A stretch of DNA of 6,042 nucleotides, taken from NCBI GenBank assembly GCA_003644825.1, contig QNDJ01000124.1, forward strand, positions 1 to 6,042. Reading direction: 5' to 3'. This document shows positions 1 through 1,659 of this stretch, in pieces. This DNA comes from B21-G16 sp003644825 [NCBI: Candidatus Zhuqueibacterota bacterium] (GTDB lineage: Bacteria; SM23-31; B21-G16). The notes below the pieces were generated by a model. The model was given only the letters and a program-made list of their open reading frames with translations, was not told the origin of the DNA and ran no database searches. Both the position numbers and the translations under genes were made by a program. The number at the start of each line of letters is the position of its first letter. Positions within the stretch are counted from its first letter, which is position 1.

Positions 1-1659
1 AACGGGCAGTTTAATAAAATAGAAGAAGGATATAGAAACTGGAATAAGAAGAAATCTTACTGTAAAGAGAGAGATTATTCATTTATAACAACATCGGGGG
101 AAAAAGTAAAAGATTTATATACACCACTCGATATAAAGGAAAAAGATTTTATGAATGATATTGGATATCCTGGTGAATATCCTTTTACAAGGGGTGTATA
201 TACTAATATGTATAGAGGAAGATTATGGACAATGAGGCAGTTTTCTGGTTTTGGAACTGCAGAAGATACTAACAAAAGGTATCGTTACCTTTTAGAGAAT
301 GGTCAGACGGGGTTATCTGTTGCGTTTGATTTTCCTACATTAATGGGAAGGGATTCCGATGACCCATTATCTAATGGAGAAGTTGGAGTTTGTGGAGTTG
401 CTGTTGATTCTCTTCAGGATATGGAAACAATTTTTAAAGGGATACCTCTGGATAAGGTTTCAACTTCTATGACAATTAATGGACCTGCAATTGTTTTACT
501 TGCGTTGTATGTTGCAACAGGTGAGAGACAGGGTATTGCTCACCATAAGCTAACCGGAACATTGCAGAATGATATTCTTAAAGAATATATGGCACAGCAT
601 GCCTATATATTTCCACCGAGGCCAGCTTTAAAATTAATAATAGATATAATTGAATTTTGTACCAATGAAGTTCCTAAATGGAATACAATATCTATAAGTG
701 GTTACCATATAAGAGAAGCAGGTTCTACAGCAGTTCAGGAACTTGCGTTTACACTTGCAGATGGATTTACCTATGTGGAAGAGGCAATTAAAGCTGGAAT
801 TGACGTTGATAAATTTGCCCCGAGGTTATCCTTTTTCTTTAATTCTCACAATGATTTTTTTGAAGAAATAGCAAAATTCAGAGCGGCACGTAGAATCTGG
901 GCAAGACATATGAAAGAGAAATACGGAGCAAAAAATCCCAGGTCCTGGTTAATGAGGTTTCATACTCAGACTGCCGGGTGCAGTTTAACGGCTCAGCAAC
1001 CAGAAAACAACATCGCCAGGGTAACAATACAGGCTATGGCTGCGGTACTTGGCGGCACCCAGTCTCTACATACAAATTCTATGGACGAAACCTGGGCTCT
1101 TCCAACGAAAAAAGCAGCTACAATTGCTTTAAGAACTCAGCAGATTATTGCTTTTGAATCTGGTGTTGCAAATACTATAGACCCTCTTGCTGGTTCATAT
1201 TTTGTTGAGTCATTAACTGATAAAATGGAAGAACAGGCTGAAGAATACTTTGAAAAAATTGAAAAAATCGGTGGAGTAATAAAAGGAATTGAAGAAGGTT
1301 ATTTTCAACGAGAAATTGCTAAATCAGCTTCACAATATCAAAAAGAAATAGAAACAAAAGAAAGAATTATTGTTGGTGTTAATGAATTTGTTATGAAGGG
1401 GGAAGAACTTGAAATACCTATCCTGAAAATAGACCCTGAAGTAGAAAAAGCTCAAAAAGAAAGACTGGCTGAGTTAAAAAATAATAGGTCACAGGAAGAT
1501 GTTAAAAATAAGCTTAAAAAAGTAAAGGAGGCTGCAGAAAAAGGATTGAATCTTGTGCCACCGATTCTTGATGCTGTTCGTGTTTATGCTACTGAAGGTG
1601 AGATAATTTCGGAACTAAAGAATGTTTTTGGTGAATGGAAAGAACCCAAAATTCTCTAA
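1..1659 (+). CDS. icmA: B12-dependent acyl-CoA mutase large subunit, probably isobutyryl-CoA mutase (5' partial)
   Basis: Catalytic TIM-barrel subunit of the methylmalonyl-CoA mutase family, which rearranges acyl-CoA carbon skeletons by radical chemistry using adenosylcobalamin held by a partner subunit. The frame is open from base 1 with no stop. The codons before the first ATG (151) encode conserved family sequence (TTSG, then LYTP, about visible residues 30-42), so the start lies upstream; probably only a few to about 20 residues are missing from a usual length near 560. Family blocks seen: [10 protein letters not shown]-like block, [46 protein letters not shown]. Using visible codon numbers, the residues matching Tyr89 and Arg207 of Propionibacterium methylmalonyl-CoA mutase are Phe81 (241-243) and Gln199 (595-597), as described for isobutyryl-CoA mutase. 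Gln189, Tyr235 and His236 are conserved. Ala108 stands where, from memory, 2-hydroxyisobutyryl-CoA mutase has Asp. There is no C-terminal B12 domain; that is the next gene. Family membership is very sure. The substrate is inferred, and methylmalonyl-CoA or another branched acyl-CoA remains possible. Confidence 0.93.

What the first reader, a model, noticed from the sequence alone, without database searches (positions are those of the whole stretch)
241..597. Mutase annotated by similarity as methylmalonyl-CoA mutase carries the isobutyryl-CoA mutase residue pair Phe/Gln
Seen: Phe at 241-243 in MRQFSGF and Gln at 595-597 in KEYMAQH. They are 118 residues apart, exactly the spacing of Tyr89 and Arg207 in Propionibacterium methylmalonyl-CoA mutase, and the following Tyr-His pair (703-708) keeps its spacing too. 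Known: Tyr89/Arg207 bind the substrate carboxylate, and isobutyryl-CoA mutase (Streptomyces IcmA) has Phe80/Gln198 instead, while 2-hydroxyisobutyryl-CoA mutase has Ile and Gln. Further blocks (PTLMG, TINGPA) also look IcmA-like. Inference: the enzyme interconverts isobutyryl-CoA and n-butyryl-CoA, linking valine or branched-acid metabolism to butyrate, rather than serving propionate/succinate metabolism.
Basis: partly seen in the sequence, partly recalled or inferred. Interest (0 to 1): 0.68.

Follow-up and report, generated by a model that had tools for sequence, protein, structure and literature searches.

The report
Stand-alone isobutyryl-CoA mutase gene pair
The gene that automatic annotation would file under methylmalonyl-CoA mutase is most likely a vitamin-B12 enzyme that interconverts isobutyryl-CoA and butyryl-CoA in a probably anaerobic bacterium, a known kind of enzyme in a new host.

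Summary
In detail: Phe (241-243), Gln (595-597) and Tyr-His (703-708) are where stated and align to Tyr, Arg and Tyr-His of P. shermanii MCM with no gap between them; solved isobutyryl-CoA mutase IcmF has Phe and Gln there. A third site (Leu, 340-342) separates Phe/Gln from Tyr/Arg relatives in 62 of 62 and 51 of 51 rows. With seven specificity columns removed, 29 of 30 Phe/Gln proteins form one supported clade holding the window; shutting the window out is rejected (p 0.014). Of 60 genomes, 17 of the 18 with a typed Phe/Gln mutase also have a Tyr/Arg one; the window's genome shows only Phe/Gln and no epimerase. Some relatives place Phe/Gln mutases beside C4 beta-oxidation or CoA-transferase genes. 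Best reading: a stand-alone IcmA/IcmB-type isobutyryl-CoA mutase feeding valine- or isobutyrate-derived carbon into butyryl-CoA oxidation. Substrate is inferred, not assayed; Streptomyces IcmA could not be compared; the genome is 83.6% complete. Stand-alone anaerobic ICMs are in print (PMC5017805): a new member of a known kind.

The parts
1..1659 (+). Large (catalytic) subunit of a B12-dependent acyl-CoA mutase, 5' end cut by the contig end; IcmA-like
   Evidence: ORF; TIGR00641 794.8 bits over cut-off 303.8, MCM equivalog PRK09426 650.7 under its cut-off 876; PF01642; (window is the whole contig G000:C124)
241..243 (+). Phe81, equivalent of MCM Tyr89 (number recalled) and of Phe in IcmF
322..324 (+). 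Ala108, where 2-hydroxyisobutyryl-CoA mutase has Asp
340..342 (+). Leu114 (PTLMG), third site that separates Phe/Gln from Tyr/Arg mutases
595..597 (+). Gln199, equivalent of MCM Arg207 (number recalled) and of Gln in IcmF
703..708 (+). Tyr235-His236, conserved pair (role in the active site recalled)
1701..1705 (+). GGAGG, likely ribosome-binding site of the small subunit
   Evidence: read; inference
1714..2118 (+). Small, B12-binding subunit (IcmB-like)
   Evidence: TIGR00640 173.8 bits over cut-off 57.45; PF02310; best solved match 4r3u_C, HCM small subunit
1756..1773 (+). DGHDRG, the Asp-x-His-x-x-Gly cobalamin motif (motif recalled)
   Evidence: read; aligned

Best explanation
The window encodes a stand-alone, two-subunit adenosylcobalamin-dependent isobutyryl-CoA mutase. 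The large subunit binds the acyl-CoA; the small subunit brings AdoCbl, whose Co-C bond breaks to give a 5'-deoxyadenosyl radical that removes a hydrogen from a methyl of isobutyryl-CoA; the CoA-carbonyl group migrates and n-butyryl-CoA results (reversible; established chemistry of the family, recalled). Phe81, Gln199 and Leu114 stand where MCM has Tyr, Arg and Gln/His, of which Tyr and Arg hold the free carboxylate of methylmalonyl-CoA (recalled), leaving an uncharged pocket for a methyl group. Shown here: residues, subunits, clade, context. Inferred: the substrate, and the route valine -> 2-oxoisovalerate -> isobutyryl-CoA -> butyryl-CoA -> crotonyl-CoA -> 3-hydroxybutyryl-CoA -> acetyl-CoA in an anaerobe.
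For: Phe81/Gln199/Leu114/Ala108 identical to solved IcmF (4xc6) and different from human and P. shermanii MCM (Tyr/Arg/His/Ala) and HCM (Ile/Gln/Leu/Asp) (letters). With seven specificity columns masked, 29 of 30 Phe/Gln rows form one clade (99/95) and the window pairs with the sister-genome protein (100/98); window shut out of that clade rejected, p 0.014; window added to the Tyr/Arg rows rejected, p 0.026 (control p 0.601). Sister genome G001 has both kinds: Phe/Gln with MeaB upstream and B12 subunit downstream (L083), Tyr/Arg followed by an epimerase over cut-off (L109). Of 60 genomes, 18 have a typed stand-alone Phe/Gln mutase and 17 of those also Tyr/Arg; epimerase over cut-off in 27 of 33 Tyr/Arg genomes and 0 of 27 others. 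Neighbours within 5 kb: epimerase 4 of 82 Phe/Gln against 13 of 41 Tyr/Arg loci, p 1.1e-4. Single Phe/Gln loci: L162 with 3-hydroxyacyl-CoA dehydrogenase, crotonase and acyl-CoA dehydrogenase just before and B12 subunit and acyl-CoA dehydrogenase after, a thiolase further up; L114 acyl-CoA dehydrogenase, CobA-type adenosyltransferase, mutase, CoA-transferase, B12 subunit, MeaB; L134 mutase followed by a 2-oxoacid oxidoreductase. Own genome: one mutase, no epimerase, VorB over cut-off, three acyl-CoA dehydrogenases, 3-hydroxybutyryl-CoA dehydrogenase and thiolase over cut-off, five crotonase-family matches, a CobA-type adenosyltransferase.
Against: No assay. An assayed stand-alone IcmA could not be placed in the tree. 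G000 is 83.63% complete, so absence of epimerase, MeaB and a Tyr/Arg mutase may be a gap; three of the five other same-class genomes (G001, G003, G005) do have Tyr/Arg. G000 has a full-length mmdA/propionyl-CoA-carboxylase-like subunit (C57; 860.5 bits, under its cut-off 998.8), with no mutase gene on its contig. No MeaB over cut-off, no PF01923-type adenosyltransferase. Of 16 neighbour features tested only epimerase survives Bonferroni correction; thiolase, crotonase and 3-hydroxyacyl-CoA dehydrogenase do not differ between the groups. Six of 33 Tyr/Arg genomes lack an epimerase over cut-off (three of them at 93-108 bits against 114.95), so absence is not proof. AU test did not reject window plus six long-form MCM rows (p 0.139). 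The place of HCM differs between the trees. Nothing on the window contig links the mutase to butyrate or valine genes.
Confidence: 0.82

Rival explanations
1. It is a methylmalonyl-CoA mutase with a drifted pocket that still interconverts methylmalonyl-CoA and succinyl-CoA for propionate metabolism.
For: General family names TIGR00641/PF01642; an mmdA/PCC-beta-like protein in the genome; genome incomplete; AU test of window with six long-form MCM rows not significant.
Against: The Tyr and Arg are absent and Leu114 stands in place of Gln/His; these states are kept in 62 of 62 Phe/Gln rows (Leu or Ile at 114), so this is no drift of one protein; under the MCM equivalog cut-off; no epimerase found; 17 of 18 Phe/Gln genomes carry a separate Tyr/Arg mutase; window among Tyr/Arg rows rejected (control).
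Confidence: 0.06
2. It is an acyl-CoA mutase of the ICM type whose main substrate is another uncharged branched acyl-CoA (isovaleryl-/pivalyl-CoA, 2-methylbutyryl-CoA, or a hydroxylated C4 acyl-CoA).
For: Gln is shared with HCM; an uncharged pocket does not by itself fix chain length; side activity of IcmF with isovaleryl-/pivalyl-CoA is recalled.
Against: HCM has Ile and Asp where the window has Phe and Ala; the residues equal those of IcmF; one Phe/Gln locus sits among beta-oxidation genes that would serve butyryl-CoA (L162).
Confidence: 0.1
3. It is an isobutyryl-CoA mutase but runs mainly in the biosynthetic direction, butyryl-CoA to isobutyryl-CoA, to prime iso-branched fatty acids.
For: The reaction is reversible (recalled); a fatty-acid synthesis cluster with a FabH-like gene lies on G000:C1 near VorB and an acyl-CoA dehydrogenase (the fatty-acid gene names are read from the sequences, not scanned).
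Against: The genome has VorB, which would supply isobutyryl-CoA from valine directly; the relatives' loci L162, L114 and L010 look degradative.
Confidence: 0.15

Closest known systems
Stand-alone isobutyryl-CoA mutase IcmA/IcmB (EC 5.4.99.13), Streptomyces cinnamonensis (recalled; mentioned in passages of PMC2847961)
   Same: Separate large and B12-binding subunits; Phe/Gln pair (recalled for IcmA)
Isobutyryl-CoA mutase gene cluster of Syntrophothermus lipocalidus TGB-C1, Slip_0757-0760 (PMC5017805, passages seen)
   Same: Large and small mutase genes in an anaerobe, with MeaB and adenosyltransferase; MeaB is next to the sister-genome copy (L083)
   Different: MeaB not found in the window's genome; its adenosyltransferase is on another contig; the sequences were not compared
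IcmF, fused isobutyryl-CoA mutase of Cupriavidus metallidurans (4xc6)
   Same: Phe, Gln, Leu and Ala at window residues 81, 199, 114 and 108
   Different: IcmF is one chain with an inner G-protein domain; the window has two separate subunits and no G domain
2-hydroxyisobutyryl-CoA mutase (4r3u)
   Same: Best solved-structure match of both subunits (563 and 145 bits); Gln and Leu
   Different: Ile instead of Phe, Asp instead of Ala108; separate branch in both trees
Methylmalonyl-CoA mutase (1req, 2xij)
   Same: Family, Tyr-His pair
   Different: Tyr/Arg/His instead of Phe/Gln/Leu; outside the Phe/Gln clade

Membership tests
Isobutyryl-CoA mutase, stand-alone (IcmA/IcmB) | Phe and Gln in place of MCM Tyr89/Arg207 | tested here: met
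Isobutyryl-CoA mutase, stand-alone (IcmA/IcmB) | Separate catalytic and B12-binding subunits | tested here: met
Isobutyryl-CoA mutase, stand-alone (IcmA/IcmB) | Groups with Phe/Gln mutases apart from MCM when specificity columns are removed | tested here: met
   29 of 30; AU tests
Isobutyryl-CoA mutase, stand-alone (IcmA/IcmB) | Groups with an assayed stand-alone IcmA | not testable with these tools
Isobutyryl-CoA mutase, stand-alone (IcmA/IcmB) | MeaB-type chaperone partner | tested here: inconclusive
   none over cut-off in G000, but the contig ends just where MeaB lies in sister genome G001 (L083)
Isobutyryl-CoA mutase, stand-alone (IcmA/IcmB) | Isobutyryl-CoA/butyryl-CoA activity | not testable with these tools
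   needs an assay
Methylmalonyl-CoA mutase | Tyr and Arg that bind the substrate carboxylate (role recalled) | tested here: not met
Methylmalonyl-CoA mutase | Score over the curated MCM equivalog cut-off | tested here: not met
   large subunit 650.7 against 876; that model covers a one-chain MCM with its B12 domain, so a two-subunit enzyme starts at a disadvantage
Methylmalonyl-CoA mutase | Methylmalonyl-CoA epimerase in the genome | tested here: not met
   genome 83.63% complete; over cut-off in 27 of 33 Tyr/Arg genomes
2-hydroxyisobutyryl-CoA mutase | Ile at the Phe site and Asp at residue 108 | tested here: not met
IcmF fused mutase | B12 domain, G domain and mutase in one chain | tested here: not met
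   IcmF model 358.3 against cut-off 1500

The most novel reading that the evidence does not exclude
A large clade of stand-alone mutases in bacteria and archaea, marked by Phe/Gln with Leu or Ile at the third site, is isobutyryl-CoA mutase rather than MCM, and in the window's organism, which carries a bzd-type benzoyl-CoA reductase cluster, it is the only B12 acyl-CoA mutase: carbon from valine or isobutyrate enters the same crotonyl-CoA node as aromatic carbon, with no methylmalonyl-CoA branch at all.
Probability: 0.35. Interest if true: 0.45.

Novelty: new member of a known kind. Interest (0 to 1): 0.3.

Why it matters
General family models put such proteins under methylmalonyl-CoA mutase, which can write a propionate/succinate step into genomes that may lack it and hide valine/isobutyrate-to-butyrate chemistry. 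A three-residue rule (81/114/199 in window numbering) that agrees with tree and gene context would let annotators separate the two functions, also in archaea. The enzyme class and anaerobic stand-alone members are already in print, so the gain is in annotation rather than in principle.

Tried and rejected
Methylmalonyl-CoA mutase with altered pocket, HCM and IcmF were considered and rejected on residues, model cut-offs and tree. A separate origin of Phe/Gln in Bathyarchaeota (L002 beside Tyr/Arg L015) was considered; one search does not reject a single origin (p 0.527), so it is not claimed. Phage origin: two hits in phage records, one a 691-kb Salmonella record; not followed. A first neighbour count with overlapping ORFs removed lost genes in GC-rich loci (epimerase 2 of 82 and 11 of 41); it was repeated with all frames, and that is the count used. 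The first tree held four small MCM beta subunits with very long branches; rebuilt without them. In some searches two constrained trees came out slightly more likely than the free tree, so that tree is not the very best one; the AU results stand on the comparisons as printed. A predicted structure was not made, since the alignment to solved mutases already fixes the sites. Rows left out: drop near-copies over 95% alike (L027, L046, L049 and L069 named), hits spanning under about 250 query residues, pairs other than Phe/Gln and Tyr/Arg, loci with under 4 kb of flank (the window's copy L082 among them), and the short duplicate loci L001 and L084-L101. One search uses 60 of 128 aligned rows: 15 were set aside (long branches, IcmF, genome G037 oddities), then 30 of 62 Phe/Gln (4 chosen, 26 drawn at random), 27 of 48 Tyr/Arg (9 chosen, 18 drawn) and 3 of 3 HCM-type rows. 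In genome G037 only 8 of 19 matches were typed; one further match in G047 and some IcmF-like ones were not typed either, so the genome counts rest on typed matches.

Full report
What is there. The window is a whole contig (G000:C124, 6042 bases) of a 2.48-Mb, 493-contig assembly rated 83.63% complete. It holds the large subunit of a B12-dependent acyl-CoA mutase, cut at its 5' end (1-1659), the B12-binding small subunit 54 bases further on (1714-2118), and on the other strand, in convergent order, two ABC-2 permeases and two ATPases (2133-6023), each matching a part of the RbbA model below its cut-off (the last ATPase matches drrA slightly better, also below cut-off).

The observation. Phe at 241-243, Gln at 595-597 and Tyr-His at 703-708 are exactly as stated, and align to Tyr, Arg and Tyr-His of P. 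shermanii MCM with no gap between the three places (the numbers Tyr89/Arg207 are recalled). In the solved isobutyryl-CoA mutase IcmF the same columns hold Phe and Gln, in 2-hydroxyisobutyryl-CoA mutase Ile and Gln (with letters). That Streptomyces IcmA has Phe80/Gln198 is recalled; five papers likely to state such residues are not held.

More than two residues. In a 128-row alignment the window's residue 114 (Leu of PTLMG) is Leu or Ile in 62 of 62 Phe/Gln rows and Gln or His in 51 of 51 Tyr/Arg rows; it was not used to define the groups. Residues 131, 200 and 201 also differ strongly. Residue 108 is Ala in the window, in IcmF and in both MCM references, but Asp in the HCM reference and the two HCM-like plasmid proteins (one of these is nearly identical to the reference). 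In the first set of relatives, 78 of 83 mutase hits (the window's own copy included) were Phe/Gln and 5 Tyr/Arg.

Tree. In a 127-row tree the window pairs with the Phe/Gln protein of the same-class genome G001 (99), and human and P. shermanii MCM sit among Tyr/Arg rows; two Phe/Gln proteins (L002, L131) fall on the Tyr/Arg side there (short search, three very long branches flagged). In a careful 60-row tree with seven specificity columns removed, 29 of 30 Phe/Gln rows, L131 now among them, form one clade (99/95) with the window inside; the exception is a Bathyarchaeota protein (L002). HCM lies beside L131 in the first tree and beside a Tyr/Arg row in the second. AU tests: all 30 Phe/Gln as one clade not rejected (p 0.527); the 27 Tyr/Arg rows as one clade not rejected (p 0.601), but with the window added rejected (p 0.026); the other 28 Phe/Gln rows (L002 aside) as one clade without the window rejected (p 0.014); window held with six long-form MCM rows not rejected (p 0.139, log-likelihood 26.5 lower). 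The tree speaks against MCM membership; the last test alone would not exclude it.

Gene context across relatives. Among 82 Phe/Gln and 41 Tyr/Arg loci with at least 4 kb of flank, epimerase lies within 5 kb in 4 of 82 against 13 of 41 (p 1.1e-4); two of the four Phe/Gln cases (L018, L031) also carry a Tyr/Arg mutase in the locus. Acyl-CoA dehydrogenase: 14 of 82 against 1 of 41 (p 0.02); MeaB: 34 of 82 against 9 of 41 (p 0.044); B12-binding subunit: 46 of 82 against 12 of 41 (p 0.007); class III CoA-transferase: 0 of 82 against 5 of 41 (p 0.0035); carboxyltransferase: 15 of 82 against 14 of 41 (p 0.071); thiolase, crotonase and 3-hydroxyacyl-CoA dehydrogenase do not differ. Of 16 features only epimerase survives Bonferroni correction. 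Single loci are telling, though picked by eye: L162 has 3-hydroxyacyl-CoA dehydrogenase, crotonase and acyl-CoA dehydrogenase directly before and B12 subunit and acyl-CoA dehydrogenase after the Phe/Gln mutase, with a thiolase about 5 kb up; L114 has acyl-CoA dehydrogenase, CobA-type adenosyltransferase, mutase, CoA-transferase, B12 subunit and MeaB; L010 has mutase, B12 subunit, MeaB, adenosyltransferase, thiolase and acyl-CoA dehydrogenase; L134 has the mutase followed by a 2-oxoacid oxidoreductase of the pyruvate/2-ketoisovalerate family, whose substrate is not settled by the scores.

Whole genomes. Of 60 genomes, 18 have a typed stand-alone Phe/Gln mutase and 33 a Tyr/Arg one; 17 of the 18 have both, so the two kinds hardly do one job. 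Epimerase over cut-off occurs in 27 of the 33 Tyr/Arg genomes and in 0 of the other 27; weaker matches included (E 0.001 or better), 46 of the 60 have one. The window's genome is the one with Phe/Gln only, and has no epimerase match at all. In the same class, G001 has both, G003 and G005 Tyr/Arg only, G002 and G004 neither. In G001 the Phe/Gln gene has MeaB just upstream and the B12 gene just downstream, and the Tyr/Arg gene is followed by epimerase. In the window the contig ends where MeaB would lie, which may be why MeaB is missing.

Own metabolism. Other contigs of G000 carry a VorB-type 2-oxoisovalerate oxidoreductase subunit over cut-off with an acyl-CoA dehydrogenase two genes on (C1), and a cluster of thiolase, 3-hydroxybutyryl-CoA dehydrogenase (both over cut-off), acyl-CoA dehydrogenase and an amino-acid dehydrogenase of the Glu/Leu/Phe/Val kind (C172; name read from the sequence, best model ScyB below cut-off). 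Five crotonase-family matches over cut-off and a CobA-type adenosyltransferase are present; PF01923-type adenosyltransferase was not found. So the steps from 2-oxoisovalerate through butyryl-CoA to acetyl-CoA have candidates; activation of free isobutyrate was not searched for. Against the reading: an mmdA/propionyl-CoA-carboxylase-like subunit is present (C57, 860.5 bits, cut-off 998.8), beside unrelated genes, with two weaker carboxyltransferase matches elsewhere, and an MCM locus could lie in the missing sixth of the genome.

What is known. PMC5017805 (passages seen) reports a stand-alone isobutyryl-CoA mutase cluster with MeaB and adenosyltransferase in Syntrophothermus lipocalidus TGB-C1 for syntrophic isobutyrate degradation, and says homologous clusters occur in other prokaryotes. 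PMC8674449 (passages) reports an ICM cassette in a Syntrophomonadaceae bin. PMC7764203 (passages) notes that IcmF has been widely misannotated as MCM. The type of enzyme, its anaerobic role and the misannotation problem are therefore in print. In the listings (titles and starts of abstracts, with passages of seven papers) I did not see a paper on the wide stand-alone Phe/Gln clade or the residue-114 rule; those searches cover only open-licence papers, and supplementary trees were not seen.

Verdict. Ordinary in kind, correct in substance: a stand-alone isobutyryl-CoA mutase in a new host, with the substrate inferred and not assayed.

Noticed in passing
The five group together. Possibly unknown acyl-CoA mutase activities.
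   Followed up: partly
L194 (contig C4 of the window's genome), 2576-10885: bzd-type benzoyl-CoA reductase genes (bzdQ, bzdO, bzdN over cut-off) and 6-oxocyclohex-1-ene-1-carbonyl-CoA hydratase over cut-off: the organism probably degrades aromatics anaerobically.
   Followed up: partly
L002 8001-9611 against L015 1262-2920: A Bathyarchaeota Phe/Gln mutase stands beside a Bathyarchaeota Tyr/Arg mutase in the trees (unresolved fork; 94/94), a hint of a separate switch of pocket residues, though a single origin is not rejected.
   Followed up: partly
window 2133-6023 (- strand): Four-gene ABC exporter, two ABC-2 permeases and two ATPases, each matching a part of the one-chain RbbA model below its cut-off; no sign of a link with the mutase.
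   Followed up: no
MT838864.1 3809-5284 (phage record, 9571 bases): A 34%-identical mutase-like gene in a record named Bacteriophage sp. from human faeces; may be host DNA.
   Followed up: no
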